A stretch of 64,000 nucleotides of DNA, taken from NCBI RefSeq assembly GCF_900141855.1, contig NZ_FQYU01000002.1:868001-932000 (forward strand). The letters are read 5' to 3'. The stretch comes from Pseudozobellia thermophila. Its GTDB lineage: Bacteria; Bacteroidota; Bacteroidia; Flavobacteriales; Flavobacteriaceae. The notes beneath the pieces were generated by a model. The model did no database searches, had not been told where the DNA came from, and saw only the letters and a program-made list of their open reading frames with translations. Positions 9,037 through 50,408 of the stretch are shown piece by piece (within the stretch, counting starts at the first letter, position 1; each line of letters begins with the position of its first letter). A program made the translations under genes and the position numbers.

Positions 9037-10521
9037 TTAGTATCCCGGGTTTTGGGTTATGGTGCCCCCCGATTTATCGATATCCGTTTGTGGAATAGGA
9101 TATAGCTTGTTATGTGCTTGAAAGTTTTTTCCAAGTCCCTGCAACACTGTTTCGGCAATGCCCCAACGCTTTAAATCGTTAAACCGATGCGATTCGAAGC
9201 CGAGTTCTACCCTTCGCTCCGACTGGATCCATGTTCGTACCTGGGCCTGGTCTCCGGTTTCTTCCCTTGGGGCCAATGTGGCTTCGGGCACAACCGTTCC
9301 GTCGGCCGTAGGCGTATTCTTGGCCCTTTCCCGAATTTGGTTGATAATTGGTATTGCCTCGGTGGGCTTGCCACTTTCATTCAAGGCCTCCGCCTTCCAA
9401 AGCAGTACATCCGCATAGCGTATATACACCTTGTTTCCTGGAGAATCGTCGTTTCCCTTATAATCGTCGATCGCCCCCATAATCTTTGGCGAATGTTGCC
9501 CGGCTACATTTATGGTGTAGGCCAAACGGGGGTCATTGGGCTCAAATGCGGCCAAGAAATCCTCGGTTGGCGCAAAAAATCCCCAGCCTGCCACCGCGGC
9601 CAGACCGTTACCGTTGACCGGATTTTCTCCTGAGCGATGGTCGTAGGCAAAAATCACTTCTTGATCATTGAATTCCTTACTTGCATCAAAGGCATCGAAA
9701 TAATTATCGTTCAAACCGTAAAACCCTAAATTATCCAACTCTGCTATCAGGCTCAAAACTTCCGACCAATTTTCATTGTAAAGTGCAATCTTGGCCTGAA
9801 GGGCAATAACAGCCCCAATAGAGACCCTCCATGGATCCGTTGCATCGTTCTTTACCCGAGGGGCCAATTCTTTGGCAGATTGTAAATCGATTGCTATTTG
9901 ATCCAGTACTTCGGAGCGAGGCGCCCGTACAGATACCGAAAAGGCTTCTTCAAAAGAATCAGGTGACTTTAGTATTAAGGGAACATCCCCAAAATTATTT
10001 ACGAGGTCAAAGTAGTAATAGGCCCTTAAAAAATACACCTCGGACAAGAGTTGGTTTCTTCTCGACTCCGAAATACCTGTTTTGCCAACTATCCCTTCAT
10101 CGGTCAAAAAGCCAATGGCGAGATTACTTCGGCTTACCCCTTCATAATCATAGGTCCAAATACCATTAAAGGCTTGGTTTTCGGGCGTAAAATTGAAGTT
10201 ACCTATTTCATCCATCCACGCTTGGTCCCCATCGGGGTTCCATTTTTTATTCATGTCGTTTGCGGCCATGTCCTGCAAGATGATATCGTTCCGGAACACC
10301 GTTCCAAGATCCCATCTCCAGTCCGGTATCAAGCCATTGAGTGTGTTTCTCAACGGTTGATAGGCAGACTCTACGGCAGATTCCACCGTTTCTAAAGTGG
10401 GGTCGGTATCTACTTGGTCCAAGGTAAGCAGCCCGATCGGGTCGTTGTCCAATTCACTGGTACAGGAAACCGTCGCAACAAACGGGATAAGGAACAGAAG
10501 GTTTTTATATAGCTTTTTCAT
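9037..10521 (-). CDS. susD: SusD/RagB family outer-membrane glycan-binding lipoprotein
   Basis: Surface lipoprotein that captures a glycan and closes over the SusC channel. 494 residues; lipobox ending at Cys20 (FVATVSC) followed by TSELDNDP. The N-terminal tetratricopeptide-like SusD domain is visible (for example LLSEVYFLRAYYYFDLVNNFGDVPLI, read in two pieces around residues 148-173), and the C-terminal region has the usual KVYIRYADVLLWKAEALN and ERRVELGFESHRFNDLKRWG motifs. It follows susC by 17 bp. The ligand is unknown; the GH130 enzyme downstream suggests a mannose-containing glycan. Confidence 0.96.
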   Translation of the reverse strand: MKKLYKNLLFLIPFVATVSCTSELDNDPIGLLTLDQVDTDPTLETVESAVESAYQPLRNTLNGLIPDWRWDLGTVFRNDIILQDMAANDMNKKWNPDGDQAWMDEIGNFNFTPENQAFNGIWTYDYEGVSRSNLAIGFLTDEGIVGKTGISESRRNQLLSEVYFLRAYYYFDLVNNFGDVPLILKSPDSFEEAFSVSVRAPRSEVLDQIAIDLQSAKELAPRVKNDATDPWRVSIGAVIALQAKIALYNENWSEVLSLIAELDNLGFYGLNDNYFDAFDASKEFNDQEVIFAYDHRSGENPVNGNGLAAVAGWGFFAPTEDFLAAFEPNDPRLAYTINVAGQHSPKIMGAIDDYKGNDDSPGNKVYIRYADVLLWKAEALNESGKPTEAIPIINQIRERAKNTPTADGTVVPEATLAPREETGDQAQVRTWIQSERRVELGFESHRFNDLKRWGIAETVLQGLGKNFQAHNKLYPIPQTDIDKSGGTITQNPGY

Positions 10522-10538
10522 TTTGATTTCTTTTGGGA

Positions 10539-13500
10539 TTAGAATTTTGCATTTAAGCCGAACAACAGCGAAGCGGAACTGGGGTAAGTTCCCTTGTCTA
10601 TTAAATCTGTCGTTTCGGGGTCAAGGCCTGTATAGTCTGTTATTGTCAAAAGATTCTGACCGGACAAATAAAGCCTTAGGCTATTGATCCACTTGATGTC
10701 ATCCAGGGTATAGCCCAATTCGATATTCTTGAGCCTTACATAGGATGCATCTTCAACGAAGATGCTGGAAGTTTTACTGCTTCCATTATCCTCAAAAGCT
10801 ACCCGGGGAATACTGTTGGTGCTGTTTTCGCCATCCCATGCATTCAATATGGCGGTAGTATAGTTAAATGGGCGCGTATCATAATCAACTATTTTCTTTC
10901 CATCATTGTAGCGGTCAACCCCTTCGACCCCTTGGAACATAAATGAAAAATCCCATTTTTTGTAAGACGACGTAAATGACAGTCCGAATGTAAGGTCTGG
11001 GATGGGCGATCCGATAAATTCCCGGTCATTGTCCGCACTAATGATTCCGTCTCCATTAAGGTCCTTAAACCTGATGTCTCCGGGCTTTGCACTAGGGTTT
11101 ACGGTTCCGCTCAAATGCTGGTCAATTTCGGCCTGGTTCTGGTAAATGCCTTCCATTCGGTACCCATAGTAGGCATTTAGGGGCTGGCCGACCGTTGTAC
11201 GGGTTACCTCCCCTACTATATTGGGCAGGTTAGGGTGTAGTTTTTCTACTTTATTGTCTAGTGTGGCCAAGTTGGCATTGATGCCATATTTGAACTCCCT
11301 TTCCGAATTTTGATAACCGACCGAAAATTCAAGGCCCTTGTTCCTCACCTCCCCGGCATTGAGAATGGTAGGCTCCACATTCCCCACAATGGAAGGCAGG
11401 CTTATGGGCAATAGGATATCACTTGTATATTTGTTGAAATACTCGGCCGTTAGGTTCAGTTTGTTTTGGAAAAATCCGGCATCAATCCCAAAATTGACCT
11501 GTTCCGAACTTTCCCATTTTAAATCGGGGTTTCCGAAACGATTGGTTTTAACAATACCGTTCTCTTGACTGATTAGGGTAAGGTAGGTATAATTGTCAAT
11601 TTCTTGGTTCCCAAGAATACCCCAACTGGCCCTTAGCTTTAAATTGGATAGCCAATCCACGTCCTCTAGGAAGGACTCATCTGAAATCATCCACCCTGCG
11701 GATAGCGAAGGAAAATATCCCCACTGGTTATTCTCGGCAAATCTCGAAGAGGCATCGGCCCTTAGATTGGCCGTAATCATGTACCTATCGTCATAAGAAT
11801 AGGAAGCCGAACCAAAATATGAGAAAAGAGCCCATTCAGAGGCGGAGCCACTGTTCCACAGATCGAGCTCGGTCCCCCCATAATCAAGGTAGCGGAATTC
11901 CTGATCGGTATAGGGGAACCTCGCCCTACTGGCCCCTATAGATGAGGAATAATTGGAAATATACTCCATACCCACCAAGGCGGAGAGGCTATGCTTGTCA
12001 TTCAACAAGGTCTTATAGTTCAAAGTATTGTTGACCGTTAAGGTAAAGGCCTCCCCTCTTGATTCATTTAAGCTATTGGGGCGGTTCTGCCTTCCCAACC
12101 CTGCATCGATCGCGTTACCCCCACCATCGTCGTCTCCAAAGTTTTCGTTGAATACCTTATTGTGAAAGAAAGATAGATCTACCCCAATATTGGTCCTAAA
12201 TGTCAAGTTCTTGTCCTTTAAAAAACGGTATTCCCCAAACACATTTCCAAAGGTTCTGTATGTTTTTTCGGTATTATCGGTAAAGTAGGCCATAGCTATT
12301 GGGTTGCCTACCATTTCGTACATACTTCGCTGCAAGCCCGCATCGTAACCTGTTTCGGTATAGAAGGGCATATCGGTAAAAGGGTCCCCTGTAGAATAGG
12401 TAGGGTCGTTTACATCCTTATAAACAGGAATTACGGGAGCGCGTAGCAAAGCAAAACGAATCAAACTTTCCCCTTTTGACGCCACCAAGTCTTGCTTATC
12501 GTACGAAAGCTGCAAGTTGGTGCCTATTTTCAGGCGGTCGGTCAAATCAGCGCTTATGTTGGTGCGGTAATTGATCCTTTGGTACTTGTCGTTGTCGTAA
12601 ACCACTATACCATCTTGACCGTAGTATCCCAATGACATCAGGTATTGCAATTTTTCGTTGCCACCACTGGCGGTCAGTTGCAAGTTCTGCGAGCGTCCGG
12701 TCTTAAAGAGCTCATCCAACCAATCGGTATCGGCAAAATCGGATCGGCCGCGATCGGCCGTATAGGGATTGTTACCGGTATAGGTATTGTTCCACGCCCT
12801 TTCCAAGGTATTGATATATTGTTCGGAATTGAGCAAATTCGGCAAATTCACGGCCTTGTCAAAACTATTGAAGTAATCAATATTGAATGATATTTTTCCT
12901 TTGGTCCCCTGCTTTGTGGTAACCAAAACAACACCCCCGGAGGCCCTGGATCCATAGATGGCCGCTGCCGCAGCATCCTTTAATACGGAAATGGATTTAA
13001 TATCGGCCTGGTTCAAAAACGAGATATCACGTGATGGTATACCGTCTACAACATAAAGGGGGTCGTTGTTGCCTATGGTACCCTCGCCGCGGATACGTAT
13101 TTCAACCGGGTCGCCCGGCGCCCCGGTACTCGCTGTTACCTGAACCCCGGCCACTTGCCCCTGAAGTGCCTGGGAAACATTGGGCACCCTGGTTTTTTCC
13201 AAATTCCCAAGGTCGACAACAGCGACCGCCCCGGTAAGGTCGGCTTTCTTTTGGGTGGTATACCCAACCAAAACGACCTCGTCAAGTTTTTGGGTATCTT
13301 CTACCAATACCACTTCAATATGGGTTTGGTCTCCAACGGGTATTTCTTGCGATACAAAGCCAATGCTGCTGATCACCAGCACATTATTCGGACTTATATT
13401 ATTCAAGGAAAAATTCCCATCAAAATCGGAGGCAACTCCCTTTGAGGTTCCCTTTACCACAATACTGGCACCAGGTATGGGAACCTTTCCATCCGACACA

Positions 13501-18439: not shown

Positions 18440-19066
18440 CTATAACATTCCACCAAAAAACACATGGCAGGCGATAAAGGCCAACACCGACATGATCACA
18501 CCTAAGAGGAAAACATCAAAGGATTTTCTCAAAAGTCCGTGTTTTCTATCAATGGATTTTCCGAGGTAATAAGTATCCTTGGCTATTGACCTGTAAAGGT
18601 CGTCGCCCTTGTAAATTAAGTCGGTCAATTGGTCGGAGTATTCCTCTTCCCCCATATCGCGGAAATTACCAAAATACAATAAATTGGAAGTTTTGGCCGT
18701 ACCGTGTTTGACCTCGGGACGCGTGGCCAACACTGCAAAATAGATTGAAATTAAATTGGTGAGCAGCAGCATCACCGCAGGAAAGATCAGATGCGGGTCT
18801 TTGTCCAATTGGCTTAACACCGTACCGATAATTATGGACAAAATAATGGCATTGATGGAAATTAGAATATTCGATTTTCGGTCGATCATTACGTTCAAGG
18901 TATAGTGGTTTTTCGATACCAATCGAAAAAGCGTCTCGGCACCACGCTCGGAACGCGGTTCTACTTTGGCCAACTTTTTCTTTAAGTACCTTAGCTTGTC
19001 CTTATCGATATTCAATTCGCCCGACAGGTATTCATCAATACATTTTTTCTTTTTTTTATCACTCAT
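18440..19066 (-). CDS. Stand-alone PycTM (Pycsar-effector-type) membrane protein
   Basis: A 208-residue protein that matches the PycTM domain, the transmembrane module of Pycsar antiphage effectors. Visible hallmarks: a short basic N-terminus, RGAETLFRLVSKNHYTLNVM (about 58-77), the helix following DRKSNILISINAIILSIIIG (about 82-101), a second helix (about 112-131), ATRPEVKHG, SNLLYFGNF, and a final helix near the C-terminus (about 184-205). Family members in Flavobacteriia usually carry an N-terminal HD phosphohydrolase domain; here that domain is missing and only about 57 residues precede the conserved part. It is the last gene of a three-gene operon behind a Rieske/glutamate-synthase fusion, with no cyclase beside it, so a defence role is not supported by context. 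Confidence 0.82.
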   Translation of the reverse strand: MSDKKKKKCIDEYLSGELNIDKDKLRYLKKKLAKVEPRSERGAETLFRLVSKNHYTLNVMIDRKSNILISINAIILSIIIGTVLSQLDKDPHLIFPAVMLLLTNLISIYFAVLATRPEVKHGTAKTSNLLYFGNFRDMGEEEYSDQLTDLIYKGDDLYRSIAKDTYYLGKSIDRKHGLLRKSFDVFLLGVIMSVLAFIACHVFFGGML

Positions 19067-35741: not shown

Positions 35742-36197
35742 ATGAGCACGTTTAGAAACAGGCCCAAAGACGGGTACATTCATGAAGCCGATTGGCAAGA
35801 CCTTTATTCCCTTACCGAACATTGGCAATCGGATCTGGAATTTTATAGCGATGACCTAAAATTTTTACGCGGTTTGATCGACAGGTTCTTTCTGTATATC
35901 TCCAAAAAGGAGAACATAGATAGGGTCCAGGAAATTGAACAGAGCCTACTTGAAATGGACAAGCGAGCTGCGGCCTTGCTCGAAAAAACGAAGAAGCACC
36001 TGCATCATTTGGCCGAATTGATCGACAATCCCTTCACCTACGACTCCCATGCCTTTAGAACGGAGCACGAACACTTGGAAGATGAGATACAAACCTTTGT
36101 AAAGGACTTTAGGAAGAACCGAAGAGGGGTCTTTAAGGTCACGGAATACACGATCGATGCCGAGGAAACGGTGCGCCGACTTCATTTGACCTCATAG
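35742..36197 (+). CDS. Small coiled-coil protein, stress-island paralogue A
   Basis: A 151-residue, highly charged and almost wholly helical soluble protein without a signal peptide. I do not recognise a named family. Its first half (LTEHWQSDLEFYSDDLKFLRG) is clearly related to the start of the protein at 40057-40431 (HKLWESELAFWNDELKSFKN): both have a His/Trp pair followed by spaced acidic and Leu residues and then a long coiled coil. It is the first gene after promoter 1 and is followed by the universal stress protein gene after 57 bp. The frame opens at 35700, but the ATG at 35742 begins the conserved part and fits the predicted transcription start. Confidence 0.75.
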   Translation: MSTFRNRPKDGYIHEADWQDLYSLTEHWQSDLEFYSDDLKFLRGLIDRFFLYISKKENIDRVQEIEQSLLEMDKRAAALLEKTKKHLHHLAELIDNPFTYDSHAFRTEHEHLEDEIQTFVKDFRKNRRGVFKVTEYTIDAEETVRRLHLTS

Positions 36198-38007: not shown

Positions 38008-39993
38008 ATGGAACAGAAAAGGAACAACGATACACCAAAGGACCAAAAACAAAGATTTCCTTCGGGAGGGTTCAATTACAGTTGGATCTACTTGTTGTTT
38101 TTTGGATTTTTACTGGCATTTTCATTTTTTTCAAGTCCGATTTCGGGAGCGAAAGAAGTCAGTTGGACCTTTCTTCAAGATTCCCTTCTGACGCAAAACA
38201 AGATTTCAAAAATAATAGTCGTCAATAGGGAGTTTGCCGAGATTTACCTTAAGAAAAGTACCGACGACGCCCAGAATTCCGAAGATACGGCTACCAATCT
38301 TTTCAGTACTATTGAAAGCCCCCAATACCGAATGACCATCGGTTCCATAGAGAACTTTGAAAGCAAGTTGGAAAAGGCACAAAGCAACTTTCTTCCATCC
38401 GAAAAAATAGATATACGTTACCAAAACCGCACCAATTGGTTCACGGCCCTCTCGTGGATCCTGCCCATAGCCATCTTGATCTTGTTCTGGCTCTATATGT
38501 TCAAACGAATGGGAAATGGCGGGGGCATGGGCGGTTCCATGATGAATATCGGCAAGTCTACCGCCAAGTTGGTGGACAAGGGTACTACAAGTGCCGTTAC
38601 CTTCGATGATGTAGCAGGTTTAAAGGAAGCCAAGACCGAGGTTATGGAGGTCGTCGATTTTCTAAAACATCCGGAGACCTACACCAAATTGGGTGCCAAA
38701 ATACCAAAAGGGGTCATGCTCGTAGGCCCTCCGGGCACGGGAAAGACCCTGATCGCCAAGGCCGTGGCCGGCGAAGCACAGGTGCCTTTCTTTACCATGT
38801 CGGGATCCGAATTTGTTGAAATGTTCGTAGGTGTCGGTGCCTCAAGGGTACGCGACCTGTTCAAACGTGCCAAAGAAAAGACGCCCAGTATCGTCTTTAT
38901 CGATGAAATAGATGCCATAGGCCGCTCCCGTGGCAAGGGCAACTCATTCCAGACCAACGACGAACGCGAAAGCACCTTAAACCAGCTGTTGACCGAATTG
39001 GATGGTTTTGGTCCCAATACGGGCGTTATCGTATTGGCCGCCACCAACCGGCCCGATATATTGGACAAAGCCCTTTTAAGACCCGGTAGGTTCGACCGCC
39101 ATATTTACCTCGAACTGCCTACCAAGGAAGAGCGCGAAGAAATATTCAAGGTCCACCTCAAGCCCCTTAAACTTGCCAAGGATGTAGATGTTACGGCCTT
39201 GGCCAAGTTGAGTCCCGGTTTTTCAGGGGCCGATATCGCCAACATCTGTAACGAAGCGGCCTTGATAGCGGCCCGAAAGAAAAAAGACCTTGTACATTTT
39301 CGTGATTTTATGGCGGCCCGGGACCGTATCGTGGGAGGCATGGAGCGGAAGAGCAAAATCATATCCCAAAAGGAAAAAGAAACCGTCGCCCATCATGAAG
39401 CCGGACATGCCGTGGTAAGCTGGTACCTGAAAAATGTCGATTCATTGGTTAAGGTCTCCATTATTCCACGGGGCAAATCGCTCGGTGCCGCCTGGTATTT
39501 GCCCGAAGAAAGGCAAATTGTGACCAAATCACAGTTTATGGACCAAATGTGTGCTTCGCTGGGCGGGCGGGCCGCAGAGGAAATCGTATTTAACGAGATT
39601 TCTTCCGGAGCCTTGGACGACCTTGAGAAAACGACCAAGCAGGCCTACGCCATGGTATCGTACTACGGACTGAACAAAAAGGTTGGCCCGCTTAGTTTTT
39701 ATGACTCTTCGGGACAAAACGACCGGATCATAGGCAAGCCCTACAGCGAATCTATGGCCCAGTTGATCGATACCCAAGTACAGGCTACCATTAACGGGGC
39801 TTATGAAAGGACCAAGGCGCTGTTGCAAGAACACAGGGAAGAACTGGAAGAGCTGGCCCAACATCTATTGCAACATGAAGTGGCCGAAAAAGAAGATTTG
39901 GAAAGGATTTTGGGAAAACGAGGGACACATACGACCGAGAAAAACAACAAGCATGACGACCCCCAATTATCCATCATCAACAACGAAGTATAG
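38008..39993 (+). CDS. ftsH: ATP-dependent zinc metalloprotease FtsH
   Basis: Membrane-bound AAA+ protease that degrades damaged membrane and regulatory proteins. 661 residues: transmembrane helix (about 26-43), periplasmic domain (about 44-145), second helix (about 146-165), a Gly/Met-rich linker (GGGMGGSMMN), AAA domain with Walker A GPPGTGKT (240-247), Walker B VFIDE (296-300) and SRH around NRPD...RPGRFDR (347-363), and peptidase domain with HEAGH (463-467). All active sites are intact. The acidic/polar C-terminus differs from the housekeeping form, and this copy sits inside a stress operon, so it may be a second, inducible FtsH; that needs the rest of the genome to decide. Confidence 0.96.
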   Translation: MEQKRNNDTPKDQKQRFPSGGFNYSWIYLLFFGFLLAFSFFSSPISGAKEVSWTFLQDSLLTQNKISKIIVVNREFAEIYLKKSTDDAQNSEDTATNLFSTIESPQYRMTIGSIENFESKLEKAQSNFLPSEKIDIRYQNRTNWFTALSWILPIAILILFWLYMFKRMGNGGGMGGSMMNIGKSTAKLVDKGTTSAVTFDDVAGLKEAKTEVMEVVDFLKHPETYTKLGAKIPKGVMLVGPPGTGKTLIAKAVAGEAQVPFFTMSGSEFVEMFVGVGASRVRDLFKRAKEKTPSIVFIDEIDAIGRSRGKGNSFQTNDERESTLNQLLTELDGFGPNTGVIVLAATNRPDILDKALLRPGRFDRHIYLELPTKEEREEIFKVHLKPLKLAKDVDVTALAKLSPGFSGADIANICNEAALIAARKKKDLVHFRDFMAARDRIVGGMERKSKIISQKEKETVAHHEAGHAVVSWYLKNVDSLVKVSIIPRGKSLGAAWYLPEERQIVTKSQFMDQMCASLGGRAAEEIVFNEISSGALDDLEKTTKQAYAMVSYYGLNKKVGPLSFYDSSGQNDRIIGKPYSESMAQLIDTQVQATINGAYERTKALLQEHREELEELAQHLLQHEVAEKEDLERILGKRGTHTTEKNNKHDDPQLSIINNEV

Positions 39994-40056: not shown

Positions 40057-40431
40057 ATGGAAACAACGGTTATCAACAATTCCGATTTACATTTTGAGCA
40101 TAAACTATGGGAGTCTGAACTTGCTTTTTGGAACGATGAACTCAAGTCTTTTAAAAACAGGTTAAGCGAACTCGTGACACGGTGGACCGACAAGGAGGTT
40201 CTCGCCCAATTGGAGCGTTTCCAAAACCAGTTTATGATCCATGGCAATGTCATCGCTGAAATACAGGAAACCATCAACAAGCACGAAATGAACATTTCGC
40301 GGCACAGCGAATCTATGGATGTTCCCATGGTAAAAACCCATACGGATATTCGTGAAAAAATGGAGACCCAAAGACAGATTTATGCCGACCTGAAGAAGGA
40401 TTTCTTTCAGTTTCTGTCCAAATACATGTAA
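40057..40431 (+). CDS. Small coiled-coil protein, stress-island paralogue B
   Basis: A 124-residue soluble coiled-coil protein of unknown function. The N-terminal HKLWESELAFWNDELKSFKN matches the corresponding region of the protein at 35742-36197, and both then continue as long amphipathic helices with similar lengths, so they are paralogues. It lies 63 bp after ftsH and 14 bp before the UbiB-like kinase gene; a short GCCCG/CGGGC hairpin (39998-40012) lies between ftsH and this gene but has no T-run. Its partner is unknown; its position suggests a role with FtsH or with the membrane kinase. Confidence 0.75.
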   Translation: METTVINNSDLHFEHKLWESELAFWNDELKSFKNRLSELVTRWTDKEVLAQLERFQNQFMIHGNVIAEIQETINKHEMNISRHSESMDVPMVKTHTDIREKMETQRQIYADLKKDFFQFLSKYM

Positions 40432-43572: not shown

Positions 43573-43616
43573 CTGACGTATGTCATGCTAATTCCTTTGC
43601 GACCGGAATACCTTTA
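43573..43616 (+). promoter_or_regulatory. Stress-island promoter 3 (dps): CRP/FNR-type box plus -7 element
   Basis: Box CTGACGTATGTCAT at 43573-43586 (TGA-N6-TCA), exactly 22 bp, then TACCTTTA at 43609-43616, the same octamer as in promoter 1. The dps ATG follows at 43643, giving nearly the same distance from box to start codon as in promoter 1 (56 against 51 bp). Confidence 0.65.
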
Positions 43617-43642: not shown

Positions 43643-44119
43643 ATGAAGACACCCAACATCGGAATTCCAGCAGAAAACAGACAAGCCATTGCCGATCAAT
43701 TGGCCAAGATCTTGGCCGACGAATTTGTGCTCTATTCCAAAACCCTGAATTTTCACTGGAACGTTGAAGGTCCTGATTTTCATACCGTCCACGTTTATTT
43801 AGAGACCCTCTACAATGAGCAACAGGAGATTGTCGACACCCTTGCCGAAAAAATACGCGCGATAGGCCATTATGTGCCCGCAACCTTAAAACAATATTTG
43901 GAATTAACGCATCTTACCGAAAAGACAAAAGGCAAGAACGACAGCCAAAGCCTATTTGCCGAACTGTTGGCAGACCATGAGAGCATTATTATTTTCTTAA
44001 GGGAAGAAATTAAGCCCATTGCGGATAAATGGCAAGCCGAAGGCATCACCGATTATATTACCGGACTGATGGAACAACACGAGAAAACCGCTTGGATGCT
44101 ACGCTCGCATCTACAATAA
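43643..44119 (+). CDS. dps: Dps-type DNA-protection ferritin
   Basis: Dodecameric mini-ferritin that oxidises and stores iron with hydrogen peroxide and can shield DNA. 158 residues in a four-helix bundle. The inter-subunit ferroxidase ligands have the classical spacing: H38 in NFHWNVEG, H50 in FHTVHVYLE, D65 and E69 in IVDTLAEK. The N-terminal tail is short and carries one Lys, so strong DNA binding through the tail is not obvious. It is the first gene after promoter 3. Confidence 0.95.
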   Translation: MKTPNIGIPAENRQAIADQLAKILADEFVLYSKTLNFHWNVEGPDFHTVHVYLETLYNEQQEIVDTLAEKIRAIGHYVPATLKQYLELTHLTEKTKGKNDSQSLFAELLADHESIIIFLREEIKPIADKWQAEGITDYITGLMEQHEKTAWMLRSHLQ

Positions 44120-46670: not shown

Positions 46671-47441
46671 CTACTTGTCGGAGGCGTACCTATTGAAGAA
46701 ACTAAGCTCGATACTTTTTTTGGCCGTGTCCAAGAGCCTACGTACCTGATCTAAGCTCTCGTTTCGGATCACGGCGATTTCCTCTAGGGAAAATTCGTAT
46801 TCGGTCGCCAGTTCAAAAACCGTCCGCATGGGCAAGGGCAGGTTGTGCAATACCATTTTCGTGTGTTTTGCCATCTCCTCTTCGCCTAGTTCCCGGTCCA
46901 GTTTGTCTTGAAGCTTCTGTTTGTTGTTTTCAATAAAAGCACGGTTCAGCACATAGTCGTTCTTGGGATAGGAGCTATCGTCGAGTTCCTCGATCATCAC
47001 TAGGTCGCCATCGCCATCGGTACTGAATTTTTCTTCCATGGCATCCCATTCGGCCTTTGAGTAGTCGTCGATGTTCTTTAAGAAATAATCATCGAATTCC
47101 TCGTCCACAATGGTTTCCTCCAAAAGCTCGTCCGCTTTTTTGAACAGCCAAGGATGCAATTCGTTTTCATTCGTCACCTCATCGAAATGGTCGTAGGCTT
47201 CGATAAAAAGTTGATCGATAAAATCATCGGTCTTGTATTTCCCATGGGGCAGGTTGCCCTTGGTCAAGGCCGTGCCAATTCTACTGGAGATGTAGCGCCG
47301 TACCTGATGCAGCGTTTTCAGCAACAAGTCGTTGAATGCCGATTTGTCGTTTTCTTTTTTTAACCGCTTTAAATCGACAAAGGTACTGGCTACAAATACA
47401 TTGAATCCCTTTTTGCTTTCGTAATATTTTAGCGTTTCCAT
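46671..47441 (-). CDS. Sigma-70-like protein with intact region 4
   Basis: A 256-residue protein related to ECF sigma factors. Residues about 195-250 form a region-4 helix-turn-helix (LPLPMRTVFELATEYEFSLE, then IAVIRNESLDQVRRLLDTAK). Residues about 40-110 have the helical outline of region 2 (VRRYISSRIGTALTKG, DDFIDQLFIEAYDHF, ELHPWLFKKADEL) but depart from the usual sequence. Between them lies an acidic linker of about 85 residues (EEFDDYFLKNIDDY, FSTDGDGDLVMIEELDD), far longer than in normal ECF factors. It is preceded by its own copy of the island promoter (47469-47512) and may extend the stress response to a second layer of genes. No anti-sigma gene is adjacent. Confidence 0.75.
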   Translation of the reverse strand: METLKYYESKKGFNVFVASTFVDLKRLKKENDKSAFNDLLLKTLHQVRRYISSRIGTALTKGNLPHGKYKTDDFIDQLFIEAYDHFDEVTNENELHPWLFKKADELLEETIVDEEFDDYFLKNIDDYSKAEWDAMEEKFSTDGDGDLVMIEELDDSSYPKNDYVLNRAFIENNKQKLQDKLDRELGEEEMAKHTKMVLHNLPLPMRTVFELATEYEFSLEEIAVIRNESLDQVRRLLDTAKKSIELSFFNRYASDK

Positions 47442-47468: not shown

Positions 47469-47512
47469 CAAAATTGCAGACTAGTGGGCAGTAATACTAT
47501 GACCAAGATCAG
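47469..47512 (-). promoter_or_regulatory. Stress-island promoter 4 (sigma-like gene): CRP/FNR-type box plus -7 element
   Basis: On the minus strand, box CTGATCTTGGTCAT (plus 47499-47512), exactly 22 bp, then CAATTTTG (plus 47469-47476), one base from TAnnTTTG. The box lies 57 bp before the start codon at 47441, as at promoters 1 and 3. The sequence GGTCATAGTATT is shared exactly with promoter 1. Confidence 0.6.
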
Positions 47513-47571: not shown

Positions 47572-50259
47572 CTAACCTTGGGAGGTTGTGACAAGACCCT
47601 TGCCCAAGTGCTTGACGGCCTGTGCGGCCACCAAGCCCCCCAAGGCGAACAGTACGACCAAACCCAATTGCACTGCCGACAATGGCATAAGGTTGAGTGC
47701 CTTTGCAGCAGTCGGGATAAGGACGATTCCGAAGGCAATCAACAAGGAGAGGACGATGGCGCCCCATACCCAGGGATTGACCGTGACTTCGTTTTTAAAA
47801 AAAGATTCCCTGCTTTTGGGCATATTGAAAACGTTGAGCAGTTGGGCCAATACCAAGGTATAGAAGGCCATATTGTTCGTAATTTGGGCCGAAAGCCCCA
47901 AACTGTAATGGGAATATACCACCATACCAAGTACCGCGGCACTGATGCAAAGACCGTAGGCAAGGGTTTCGTACCAGTCCGAACGGCCCAAAATGGGTTC
48001 CTTTGGTTTTTTGGGCGGCTGCCTCATAATGTCCTTTTCCCCCTTTCCCAGCCCCAGGGCCAAGGCCGGAAAGATATCGGTGACCAAATTCAGGAACAAG
48101 ATCTGTAAGGGCAGCAAGGGGGAAGTAAGATCAAACAGGGCCGCCACGGCGACCGACACGATCTCCGCCAGATTACATGATAAAAGGTATACCACGAATT
48201 GACGGATATTCTGAAAGATGACCCTACCTTGCCGAATGGCCAGTTCTATGGCGGTGAACTTATCGTTCTTTAAAATAACATCGGCCGCTTCGCGGGCGGC
48301 TTCGGTACCGCGTATGCCCATGGCAATGCCGATATCCGCTTTTTTGAGGGCGGGTACGTCGTTGATACCATCGCCGATCATGCCCACGATATGGTTGTTC
48401 CTTTGATAGAATTTGACCAAGTTCAGTTTCTGCTCTGGGGTTACCCTGGCAAAGACTACGGCTTCCCGCAATTTGGAGCCCTTATCGGTCTGGAAGTCCC
48501 CTTTTACAAGGTCTATGCCCCGCAATACGGCCATGGGGGAGGCTCCGTCTTGTACCAGGCCCACTTCTTCCGCAATTTTTTTGGCGGTTCCCGGATGGTC
48601 TCCGGTCGCCATGACCACTTTTATACCCGCTTTTTTATAAATGGCGATGGTCGTTTTTACATCTTCCCTAGCAGGATCGATAAAGCCCACTACCCCCAAG
48701 AAGGTAAGTTGTTGAAGTAGGGTTTCCCTTTTGGGCATTTCCTTCACCCTTTTATGGGCGAACGCCAGGGTACGCAAGCCTTGGAAGGCCAAACGATCTA
48801 CCTTTTCCTCCCATTCGCCCTTATTGTTGAATGCCGCAGTTCCATCGGACCCCATAATGCTATCGCAACGGCCGACAAGGTTCTCATAAGCTCCCTTAAC
48901 ATAGACATCGAAGTATTCACTGTCTCTATGGGCCGTTGCCATAAGCTTTCGTTCGGCATCGAAAGGGAGCTCGAGTATTTCGGGGTTGTTCTTTTTAAGG
49001 GTAGCCACCCCATATTCCATATATTCCGCAAATTCCACTAGGGCCAGCTCTATGGAATCGCCCCGTTTTTGCTTCGCCTTGAAATCCACATTGTTACAGA
49101 GTATGCCGGTCCTCATCATTTCTTCGAAAACCCTGTTTCCCTTGAGGCCCTTGAGCAAGGTCTCGTCGGCTTGGTACACATCCGGTATAAATGTCTCCCC
49201 GAAAACTAGCGCATGTACCTTCATCCTGTCCTCGGTGAGGGTCCCGGTCTTATCCGTGCAGATTACCGTGGTGGCCCCCAAGGTCTGAACCGCTTCCATT
49301 TTCTTGATCACCACCTTTTTTTGGGCCAGTTTGAGCATACCTTGGGCCAAGGCCACCGTTGCCACTATCGGCAAGCCTTCGGGTATGGCCGCTACCGCAA
49401 GCGCCACACCCGTTTCGATCATCAACAGGAGGTCTTTGCCCCTAATCGCGCCAATAAGCACAATTAAGGCCGCAAGGAACAAGACCAAGCCAATAAGCGC
49501 CCTGCTCAGGCGGTTCAGTTTTTTCTCCAGGGGCGTGCTCTCCTTTTGGGCATCGATACCCATTTGCTGTATATGTCCCAATTGGGTGTCCTTACCTGTT
49601 GCCGTAACGATGGCGCTGCACGATCCGGCCACCACGACCGTTCCCCTGAACACCATATTGCCCTGGTCGGAAATTGGGGTTCCGTCGGCCACCACATCCG
49701 TGAACTTGGCAACGGGAATACTCTCCCCGGTAAGGGCGGATTCTTTTACGGTAAGGTTATCGACTTGGATCAAGCGGGCATCTGCGGGGACCACGTCGCC
49801 CGGCCCCAACAGAATGAGATCTCCGGGGACCAGTTCCGAAGCCGCGATGGCCATCTGATGGCCGCCCCTTACCACCACGACCGTGGTTTGGCCCATTTTT
49901 CGAAGGGCCTCCAGCGAACGCACCGCCTGCAACTCCATAAAAAAACCGATGGATACGGAAATCACGATAACGACGAGGATGGCAAAGCCTTCCAAGGGAT
50001 CGTTGAACATAAAGGCCAGCAAGGCGGCCACCGCCAAGATGTAAATGATGGGATCCAATACTTGGTCGGCCAGGATGCGCCATCGTTTTTTGGGGGCCTG
50101 CCCCGGAACCTCATTGGGGCCATAAGATTCAAGACGTCGCCGTACCTTGTCTTCGTCCAAGCCCATTTCTTTGTTACTGCCCAGGCTTGCAATTGTTTCT
50201 TCTACGGAAATAGCAAAGGGATTTCGGAGCATTTGTAACGTTTTTAGGAATCCGGACAA
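47572..50259 (-). CDS. P2A-type cation-transporting P-ATPase, probably Ca2+
   Basis: An 895-residue ion pump of the inner membrane. Actuator motif TGES (177-180), phosphorylation site D336 in DKTGT, nucleotide-domain KGAYENL and hinge GDGINDVPALKKADIGIAM are all present. The ion-site helices match calcium pumps: PEGLP in M4 (293-297), CNLAEI in M5 (Asn and Glu at the SERCA N768/E771 positions) and NLVTD in M6 (SERCA N796/T799/D800). Ca2+ export is therefore likely, though Mn2+ or Na+ variants of this subgroup exist. It is transcribed alone, from promoter 5 of the stress island, away from the mannoside cluster. Confidence 0.93.
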   Translation of the reverse strand: MSGFLKTLQMLRNPFAISVEETIASLGSNKEMGLDEDKVRRRLESYGPNEVPGQAPKKRWRILADQVLDPIIYILAVAALLAFMFNDPLEGFAILVVIVISVSIGFFMELQAVRSLEALRKMGQTTVVVVRGGHQMAIAASELVPGDLILLGPGDVVPADARLIQVDNLTVKESALTGESIPVAKFTDVVADGTPISDQGNMVFRGTVVVAGSCSAIVTATGKDTQLGHIQQMGIDAQKESTPLEKKLNRLSRALIGLVLFLAALIVLIGAIRGKDLLLMIETGVALAVAAIPEGLPIVATVALAQGMLKLAQKKVVIKKMEAVQTLGATTVICTDKTGTLTEDRMKVHALVFGETFIPDVYQADETLLKGLKGNRVFEEMMRTGILCNNVDFKAKQKRGDSIELALVEFAEYMEYGVATLKKNNPEILELPFDAERKLMATAHRDSEYFDVYVKGAYENLVGRCDSIMGSDGTAAFNNKGEWEEKVDRLAFQGLRTLAFAHKRVKEMPKRETLLQQLTFLGVVGFIDPAREDVKTTIAIYKKAGIKVVMATGDHPGTAKKIAEEVGLVQDGASPMAVLRGIDLVKGDFQTDKGSKLREAVVFARVTPEQKLNLVKFYQRNNHIVGMIGDGINDVPALKKADIGIAMGIRGTEAAREAADVILKNDKFTAIELAIRQGRVIFQNIRQFVVYLLSCNLAEIVSVAVAALFDLTSPLLPLQILFLNLVTDIFPALALGLGKGEKDIMRQPPKKPKEPILGRSDWYETLAYGLCISAAVLGMVVYSHYSLGLSAQITNNMAFYTLVLAQLLNVFNMPKSRESFFKNEVTVNPWVWGAIVLSLLIAFGIVLIPTAAKALNLMPLSAVQLGLVVLFALGGLVAAQAVKHLGKGLVTTSQG

Positions 50260-50364: not shown

Positions 50365-50408
50365 TAAAATTAAAAAGAGTATGCAGTACAATTGATGACC
50401 TAGGTCAT
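50365..50408 (-). promoter_or_regulatory. Stress-island promoter 5 (P-ATPase): CRP/FNR-type box plus -7 element
   Basis: On the minus strand, the perfect palindrome ATGACCTAGGTCAT (plus 50395-50408), exactly 22 bp, then TAATTTTA (plus 50365-50372), one base from TAnnTTTG. It is the best box of the five and defines the consensus. The untranslated leader to the ATPase start at 50259 would be about 95 bases, longer than at promoters 1, 3 and 4. No -7 element lies at the right distance in the other direction. Confidence 0.68.

What the first reader, a model, noticed from the sequence alone, without database searches (positions are those of the whole stretch)
46671..47441. Sigma-like factor with a long acidic linker inside the stress regulon
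Region 4 is well preserved, region 2 is divergent, and about 85 acidic residues separate them, much longer than in ECF factors. It carries its own copy of the island promoter, so the presumed CRP/FNR activator would feed a second regulator. No anti-sigma gene is adjacent, which suggests control by amount or through the acidic linker itself.
Basis: partly seen in the sequence, partly recalled or inferred. Interest (0 to 1): 0.55.

Follow-up and report, generated by a model that had tools for sequence, protein, structure and literature searches.

The report
Sigma-shaped stress protein with conserved core
In flavobacteria a stress and low-oxygen gene set makes a protein shaped like the part of RNA polymerase that finds promoters, but its DNA-reading surface is acidic and in distant relatives it is fused to what looks like a ribosome-hibernation domain, so it may quieten or redirect transcription rather than read promoters in the usual way.

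Summary
The gene is real (256 aa), sigma-like, and belongs to a family that no curated model names. Full-length members lie in 53 of 198 genomes of its bacterial family. A predicted structure shows sigma region 2 and region 4 folds.

Three results change the reading. First, the "acidic linker" holds the best-conserved 30 residues of the protein; across ECF factors the linker is called the least conserved region (PMC6411747). Second, region 2.3-2.4, which reads the -10 element in ECF factors, is acidic: mean net charge -6 against +4 in 21 ECF factors. A sister clade is near neutral. Third, in two genomes of other families the module follows an HPF-like (ribosome hibernation) domain; a third case is uncertain.

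The CRP/FNR-type promoter is confirmed: TGA-N6-TCA upstream of 21 of 25 clade-A genes (1.3 expected), with a -7-like element at exactly 35 bases in 17 of 20. One of two own-genome HPF genes has the same kind of site at almost the same distance.

Best guess (0.42): a sigma mimic that binds RNA polymerase and lowers or redirects transcription while ribosomes hibernate. Main rival (0.28): a true sigma with unusual promoter reading.

The parts
46671..47441 (-). sigma-like gene (256 aa)
   Evidence: full-length members in 53 of 198 genomes of the same bacterial family
47112..47369 (-). sigma region 2 fold (residues 25-110)
   Evidence: AF2 model; residues 18-120 align to sigmaE region 2 with -10 DNA (4lup), Z 9.3, rmsd 2.5 over 90 residues; the tool warns that Z under about 13 can be a common arrangement for helical folds
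47088..47168 (-). acidified region 2.3-2.4 (residues 92-118)
   Evidence: net charge -6.2 [-9..-4] in 23 clade-A members against +4.3 [+1..+7] in 21 ECF factors
46878..47078 (-). long acidic spacer (residues 122-188)
   Evidence: clade A mean 67 residues, net -13, against 23.5 residues, net -4 in 21 ECF factors
46968..47057 (-). conserved motif inside the spacer (residues 129-158)
   Evidence: mean relative entropy 2.84 bits; best 30-residue window starts at 131; E131, E137, D155 and Y158 invariant in 22 of 22
46692..46871 (-). sigma region 4 fold (residues 191-250)
   Evidence: Z 12.4, rmsd 1.7 over 69 residues to sigmaE region 4 (2h27)
47499..47511 (-). CRP/FNR-type site TGATCTTGGTCAT
   Evidence: TGA-N6-TCA in 21 of 25 clade-A upstream regions, 1.27 expected
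47470..47476 (-). -7-like element CAATTTT, 35 bases after the TGA
   Evidence: 17 of 20 clade-A sites have [CT]ANNTTT at offset 35; 2.0 expected for any offset from 32 to 39
38008..39993 (+). second FtsH protease of the genome, in the same island
43643..44119 (+). Dps/ferritin-like gene with a site of the same type upstream (43574-43586)
47572..50259 (-). P-type cation ATPase with a palindromic site upstream (50395-50408)

Best explanation
The gene encodes a sigma-70-fold protein (regions 2 and 4) of a family found, in the genomes searched, only in its own bacterial family and a few others of the same class. It is expressed from a CRP/FNR-type promoter as part of a low-oxygen/stress gene set (supported by comparison; the activator itself is not identified). 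I infer that it docks on RNA polymerase core with regions 2.1-2.2 and 4 as ECF factors do, and places its conserved acidic motif in the active-centre cleft or RNA-exit channel, where ECF linkers run. Because region 2.3-2.4 is acidic or neutral, I infer that it cannot hold a normal -10 element. It would then act as a sigma mimic that occupies or redirects RNA polymerase, in step with HPF, which parks ribosomes. A second FtsH, encoded within 10 kb in seven genomes, may remove it when stress ends (inferred).
For: Fold: regions 2 and 4 match sigma structures. Charge at the -10-reading surface does not overlap between 23 clade-A members and 21 ECF factors. Position 232, at the start of the region 4 helix, is E/D in 19 of 24 clade-A members and T/A/G in 20 of 21 ECF factors; position 239 is D/E in 12 of 24 and K/R in 14 of 21. 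[quoted passage not shown] HPF-like domain in front of the module in G233 (two genes) and G205: the domains scanned alone match TIGR00741 at E=1.7e-4, 1.1e-3, 5.2e-3 and PF02482 at 6.6e-5, 0.0015, 0.0031, the first over its cut-off. One of the two own-genome HPF genes (C16) has a TGA-N6-TCA site 71 bases before its start; this gene has one at 70. Of 30 genomes searched, 9 have a second FtsH and in 7 of these it lies within 10 kb of the family gene.
Against: Clade B, which shares the motif and mostly the promoter, is only near neutral in 2.3-2.4 (mean -0.2, range -5 to +4) and has R/K at 232 in 11 of 16. At position 234 the difference runs the other way: E in 15 of 21 ECF factors, K/R in 11 of 24 clade-A members. 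Basic residues over 190-250 fall only from 10.4 to 8.0 in clade A. Comparing conservation inside one family with conservation across all ECF groups is not like with like. No data on RNA polymerase binding. Model confidence is moderate (mean pLDDT 69.9) and most of the motif lies in a stretch under 50. The HPF domains are weak matches, two of three under Pfam's cut-off and all under NCBIfam's; G205 and the second G233 gene were not found by the PF02482 genome search. The front domain of G595 matches no HPF family. The fused members do not group together and the node joining them to A and B has support 0.41. Only one fused protein (G233, 370 aa) keeps the motif whole; G205 and G595 keep part and the other G233 gene has lost most of it.
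Confidence: 0.42

Rival explanations
1. A genuine alternative sigma factor (ECF-like) that reads unusual promoters, with the conserved acidic insert working as an enlarged region 3.2-type finger and its amount set by the CRP/FNR promoter and proteolysis.
For: Both sigma domains predicted; recognition helix 228-248 has about as many basic residues as ECF factors (3.4 in A, 5.1 in B, 3.9 in ECF); acidic linkers of real ECF factors enter the active-centre cleft and one is essential (passages in PMC6372665 and PMC6411747); clade B is much less acidic at the DNA surface.
Against: About ten units of charge difference from ECF factors across region 2.3-2.4 in clade A without overlap; acid at position 232 in 19 of 24; the linker holds the most conserved stretch.
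Confidence: 0.28
2. A PhyR-type mimic: it does not touch RNA polymerase but titrates an anti-sigma factor and so frees another sigma.
For: PhyR chains are among the structural matches (9cb6 Z 10.2, 4qic 10.1, 9by5 9.8) and the top row, tied with SigW-RsiW, is RpoE bound to NepR (Z 14.1); one of 22 members hits Pfam PhyR_sigma-like at 4.6e-4; PhyR keeps the ECF fold with degenerate promoter and core contacts (passage in PMC8103513).
Against: No receiver domain in it and no anti-sigma gene annotated beside it; 21 of 22 members do not hit the PhyR family at E 0.01; ECF factors score higher than PhyR in the fold comparison.
Confidence: 0.1
3. A ribosome-side factor: the sigma-like module works with HPF on hibernating ribosomes (or on RNA), not on RNA polymerase.
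For: HPF-like domain in front of it in two genomes; one HPF gene with the same kind of promoter site in the own genome and an HPF gene 4.7 kb away in G189.
Against: Structure and profile matches are to sigma factors over both domains; the window protein and the other clade-A and clade-B proteins aligned are too short at the front to hold an HPF domain; acidic surfaces do not suit rRNA binding (inference).
Confidence: 0.13

Closest known systems
ECF sigma factors (sigmaE, SigW, AlgU)
   Same: Regions 2 and 4 with the same predicted fold; acidic connector between them
   Different: Connector nearly three times longer and holding the most conserved stretch; -10-reading surface acidic in clade A; the window protein stays under every curated cut-off listed
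PhyR sigma-like domain (alphaproteobacterial general stress response)
   Same: Sigma fold with altered promoter-reading surface, stress gene set (PMC8103513 passages)
   Different: No receiver domain on this protein and no NepR-like partner annotated beside it; in G107 the receiver sits on the CRP-type regulator encoded next door
HPF/RaiA ribosome hibernation factors (TIGR00741, PF02482)
   Same: An HPF-like domain precedes the module in two genomes, and one own-genome HPF gene shares the promoter type
   Different: The window protein has no HPF domain
RpoE of the RNA-guided transcription complex (PDB 9n9q)
   Same: Sigma; profile match in region 4 at E=4.7e-6
   Different: Not listed for the single sequence at E up to 10; no guide-RNA partner was looked for
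ECF41/ECF42 factors with extra regulatory parts
   Same: Sigma 2-4 core with an additional element (search listing and review passages only)
   Different: Their extra domain is C-terminal (SnoaL or TPR); here the element lies between regions 2 and 4. Conserved linker motifs in ECF41/42 are recalled, not checked

Membership tests
sigma-70 family / ECF sigma factor | sigma region 2 fold | tested here: met
   model residues 18-120 align to 4lup, Z 9.3, rmsd 2.5 over 90 residues; full-length rows Z 13.6-14.1. Moderate model confidence; the tool cautions about Z under 13 for helical folds. TIGR02937 aligns over 35-244
sigma-70 family / ECF sigma factor | sigma region 4 fold | tested here: met
   2h27, Z 12.4, rmsd 1.7 over 69 residues; profile match at 3e-9
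sigma-70 family / ECF sigma factor | curated family score reached | tested here: not met
   Window protein: TIGR02937 28.2 bits against 42.9; Sigma70_r4_2 17.7 against 25.7. The 370-aa fused relative of G233 does reach TIGR02937 (46 bits) and Sigma70_r4_2 (29.9)
sigma-70 family / ECF sigma factor | basic -10-reading surface in region 2.3-2.4 | tested here: not met
   net -6.2 in 23 clade-A, -0.2 in 16 clade-B, +4.3 in 21 ECF factors
sigma-70 family / ECF sigma factor | binds RNA polymerase core and directs promoter-specific transcription | not testable with these tools
   needs biochemistry
PhyR | receiver domain joined to a sigma-like domain | tested here: not met
   no receiver domain listed by Pfam in the 256 aa at E up to 10
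PhyR | binds an anti-sigma factor (NepR) | not testable with these tools
   no partner gene annotated beside it
HPF/RaiA | S30AE domain | tested here: not met
   not listed for the window protein; weak in three fused genes of G233 and G205, none in G595
CRP/FNR-regulated gene | TGA-N6-TCA site at fixed distance from a -7 element | tested here: met
   clade A: 21 of 25 with the site, 17 of 20 of those tested with the element at 35 bases; clade B 11 of 16 and 8 of 11; fused genes 0 of 3

The most novel reading that the evidence does not exclude
A dedicated RNA polymerase hibernation factor: a sigma-shaped protein without normal promoter reading that parks RNA polymerase under low oxygen, made together with HPF, which parks ribosomes. 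In some lineages one polypeptide carries both, coupling the shutdown of transcription and translation.
Probability: 0.2. Interest if true: 0.85.

Novelty: new variant of a known kind. Interest (0 to 1): 0.62.

Why it matters
It would be a family of sigma-fold proteins that keep the shape but not the usual DNA surface, linked by gene fusion and by promoter type to ribosome hibernation. That makes testable whether bacteria have a protein that quietens RNA polymerase in step with ribosomes. It also brings out a conserved low-oxygen/stress gene set with a fixed CRP/FNR-type promoter. In the paper searches that ran (open-licence papers only; the lists were capped at 8 of 25, 8 of 16 and 6 of 109) no listed title or abstract start described this family or an HPF-sigma fusion. 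One listed paper describes an HPF domain fused to a CBS module in Archaea (PMC13324472, listing only).

Tried and rejected
Ordinary ECF factor with a random long spacer: rejected because the spacer holds the strongest conservation.

Region 4 as strongly degenerate: not claimed. Basic residues: 3.4 in A, 5.1 in B, 3.9 in ECF factors over 228-248, and 8.0, 10.1, 10.4 over 190-250; net charge over 190-250 is 0.9, 2.7, 2.9. Single positions differ in both directions.

HPF gene beside the sigma-like gene as a general rule: not so. Among 30 genomes searched, HPF matches apart from the fused gene lie within 15 kb only in G189 (4.7 kb) and G055 (about 14 kb).

HPF fusion in G595: first read as a third case from the match of the whole G233 protein over residues 12-341. 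On checking, its front domain matches neither PF02482 nor TIGR00741, so it is left as uncertain.

FtsH linkage as universal: not so. The second FtsH genes of G107 and G055 are not within 200 kb of the gene on its contig, and 21 of 30 genomes have only one FtsH. The chance figure treats genomes as independent and is not used.

Clades A and B never occur together (14 and 39 of 198 genomes). That is weak evidence of exclusion (one search gave 0.04 for 14 and 40), and the clade of B members not in the tree rests on identity alone.

Structure prediction of the fused proteins was not attempted, because the tool admits only window sequences and loci of certain other searches.

Rows dropped: from 26 ECF-like ORFs four sigma-28/sigma-B-like and one duplicate, leaving 21. 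These were chosen because they match the family profile, six from the own genome and 15 from other genomes of the phylum. From the family alignment duplicates of the same gene, truncated or frame-broken copies (L009, L014, L020, L028) and the clade-B places without a locus. One search includes L014 and L020, whose starts are uncertain, and leaves out L009 and L028.

Absence of a family from the structure listing was not used as evidence.

Full report
What is there. The ORF 46671-47441 (-) encodes 256 aa. It lies in a run of stress-type genes: a ribonucleotide reductase pair, a universal stress protein, a CMD (AhpD-like) protein, FtsH, an ABC1 kinase-like protein, MgtC, Dps/ferritin-like, 3-hydroxyacyl-CoA dehydrogenase, DUF308, DUF2238 and a P-type cation ATPase. 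The genome is held as G000, 5.04 Mb. It is unnamed. The nearest named relatives found are Kriegella and Zobellia at 72-73% identity, so I take its family to be Flavobacteriaceae (inference).

Family. A search with the protein, then with a 22-row alignment, separates full-length members (E 4e-56 or lower) from ECF factors (E 4e-11 or higher, C-terminal part): 54 places in 53 of 198 genomes of the family. In the phylum sample 10 of 395 genomes hold a match at E below 1e-20, eight of them of the same family, two (G233, G205) of others in the same class. A class search with the G233 protein added G595 and G904 (7 of 395 genomes matched). Two clades appear. A has 33-73% identity to the window protein (14 of 198 genomes); B about 21-29% (39 of 198). 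No genome has both; one (G167) has two A copies. In a tree with ECF factors A and B each form one clade (support 0.74 and 0.93); the rooting is uncertain, as the ECF factors did not form one group. Of 15 clade-A places examined outside the window, with 12 to 60 kb of context, 13 have at least one gene similar to one of the window's island genes (all but G183 and G071); there was no background control. Of 25 clade-B places examined, 19 lie between the same two genes, which I read from sequence as tilS and a chorismate-binding enzyme (recalled motifs, no database call).

Fold. AlphaFold2 on 14 sequences gave mean pLDDT 69.9 and pTM 0.64, with residues 136-174 under 50. Foldseek's six hits under E 0.001 are sigma chains or transcription-initiation chains, among them SigW and sigmaE. 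VIA-align gives sigmaE region 4 (2h27) Z 12.4, sigmaE region 2 with -10 DNA (4lup) Z 9.3, and full-length RpoE-NepR and SigW-RsiW forms Z 13.6-14.1 at 3.3-3.5 A over 149-155 residues. The tool warns that Z under about 13 may be a common arrangement for helical folds, so region 2 rests also on the alignment of TIGR02937 over 35-244 and on the coverage of 90 of 91 residues of 4lup. The closed arrangement may be a habit of the predictor and is not interpreted.

The linker. Mean relative entropy is 2.84 bits for residues 129-158, 2.13 for 25-110 and 1.92 for 191-250; the best 30-residue window starts at 131 (2.86 against a median of 2.10). E131, E137, D155 and Y158, with L99 and L211, are invariant in 22 of 22 A and B members. 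Across ECF factors the linker is described as the least conserved region, as entering the active-centre cleft and RNA-exit channel, and as a negatively charged RNA mimic (passages seen in PMC6411747 and PMC6372665). That compares all ECF groups, mine one family, so the contrast is suggestive only. The spacer averages 67 residues against 23.5 in 21 ECF factors.

DNA-reading surfaces. Over residues 92-118 (regions 2.3-2.4) net charge is -6.2 (-9 to -4) in 23 clade-A members, -0.2 (-5 to +4) in 16 clade-B members and +4.3 (+1 to +7) in 21 ECF factors. After realignment with four fused or possibly fused proteins and G904 the means are -6.1, +0.4, -3.0 (fused) and +4.4. At position 232, A has E/D in 19 of 24, B has R/K in 11 of 16, ECF factors have T/A/G in 20 of 21. 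At 239, A has D/E in 12 of 24 and ECF factors K/R in 14 of 21. At 234 it is the reverse: E in 15 of 21 ECF factors, K/R in 11 of 24 A members. Over 228-248 net charge is +0.4 in A, +1.9 in B, +2.5 in ECF factors. So clade A is strongly acidic at the region 2 surface and mildly changed in region 4; clade B has lost most of the region 2 charge but not that of region 4. The role of region 2 in reading the -10 element in ECF factors is from PMC6372665, section 8, part 1 of 2.

Promoter. TGA-N6-TCA lies within 200 bases upstream of 21 of 25 clade-A genes (1.27 expected from dinucleotide shuffles), 11 of 16 clade-B genes and 0 of 3 fused genes (1.21 expected for these 19 together). [CT]ANNTTT starts exactly 35 bases after the TGA in 17 of 20 A sites (2.0 expected for offsets 32-39) and 34-35 bases after in 8 of 11 B sites (1.1 expected). 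The genes are related, so these counts are not independent. In the own genome TGAYNTANRTCAT gives 20 matches on both strands, at 15 places, against 4 for the reversed control; this gene's own site differs from that pattern at one base. Sites precede HPF (C16:34803, at 71 bases) and lie in a second island with an HK/REC-cNMP-Crp pair and Usp genes (one REC-cNMP-Crp protein, HPF and one Usp checked by Pfam, the rest read from sequence). The other own-genome HPF (C14) was not examined. Sites near genes that I read as cbb3 oxidase, and near a Crp-family regulator on C31, suggest low oxygen as one signal. CRP-type genes with frames of 350 aa or more lie within 12 kb of the family gene in 9 of 16 clade-A and 1 of 7 clade-B genomes searched; the own genome is among those without. 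In G107 the order is PAS/GAF histidine kinase, REC-cNMP-Crp regulator, this gene, with 107 bases between the last two. In G062 a 163-aa gene lies between.

Links to hibernation and proteolysis. In G233 (two genes) and G205 the module follows an HPF-like domain. Scanned alone the three domains match TIGR00741 at 1.7e-4, 1.1e-3 and 5.2e-3, all under its 40.9-bit cut-off, and PF02482 at 6.6e-5 (24.0 bits, over the 23.7 cut-off), 0.0015 and 0.0031. The PF02482 genome search found the first only, and the whole G205 protein gave no PF02482 match. G595 has a front domain of similar length that matches no HPF family. Nine of 30 genomes have a second FtsH; in seven it lies 0.5 to 9.5 kb from the family gene (G000, G128, G001, G387, G233, G205, G904), overlapping it in G233 and next to it in G205. 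Four of the seven are of one family. E. coli FtsH degrades the heat-shock sigma (recalled), hence the suggestion of turnover control.

Mechanism. Shown by comparison or prediction: family, fold, conserved motif, charge difference, promoter, genomic links. Inferred: docking on core, motif in the cleft, no normal -10 reading, quietening or redirecting of polymerase, removal by FtsH. E. coli offers a parallel in logic: CsrA coordinates ribosome hibernation factors with the anti-sigma factor Rsd (abstract of PMC10746276). Main rival: a true sigma with an enlarged finger; the near-neutral clade B keeps it alive.

Verdict. New variant of a known kind, interest 0.62.

Noticed in passing
L123:7867-8895 and 10435-11547; L124:9256-10308; L136:1-1013: HPF-like domain in front of the sigma-like module in G233 (two genes within 4 kb, one overlapping FtsH) and G205; L136 (G595) has a front domain of similar length that matches no HPF family.
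   Followed up: partly
L155/L156 (G000 C16:13000-48000): Second stress island of the own genome: HPF, about nine Usp genes and two receiver-Crp regulators with histidine kinases, with TGA-N6-TCA sites before several.
   Followed up: partly
window 40057-40431 and 35748-36197: Two small proteins (124 and 149 aa) without Pfam match recur in these islands; a 27-30% relative of the 124-aa one lies just after the sigma-like gene in G128, G039 and L009.
   Followed up: no
window 18440-19066: Protein with a PycTM (Pycsar effector) domain, apart from the stress island.
   Followed up: no
L060-L084: Clade B of the family keeps its place between the same two genes in 19 of 25 places examined, yet 11 of 16 clade-B genes tested carry the CRP/FNR-type site.
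   Followed up: partly
L157 (G000 C31:43500-47800): Crp-family regulator of 229 aa with two cysteines near its N-terminus, between genes read as oxidase, copper ATPase and Usp, with sites of the same type nearby.
   Followed up: no
G055 C1:1852462-1852743: HPF domain (PF02482) in an open frame of 458 aa about 14 kb from the family gene; possibly another HPF fusion.
   Followed up: no
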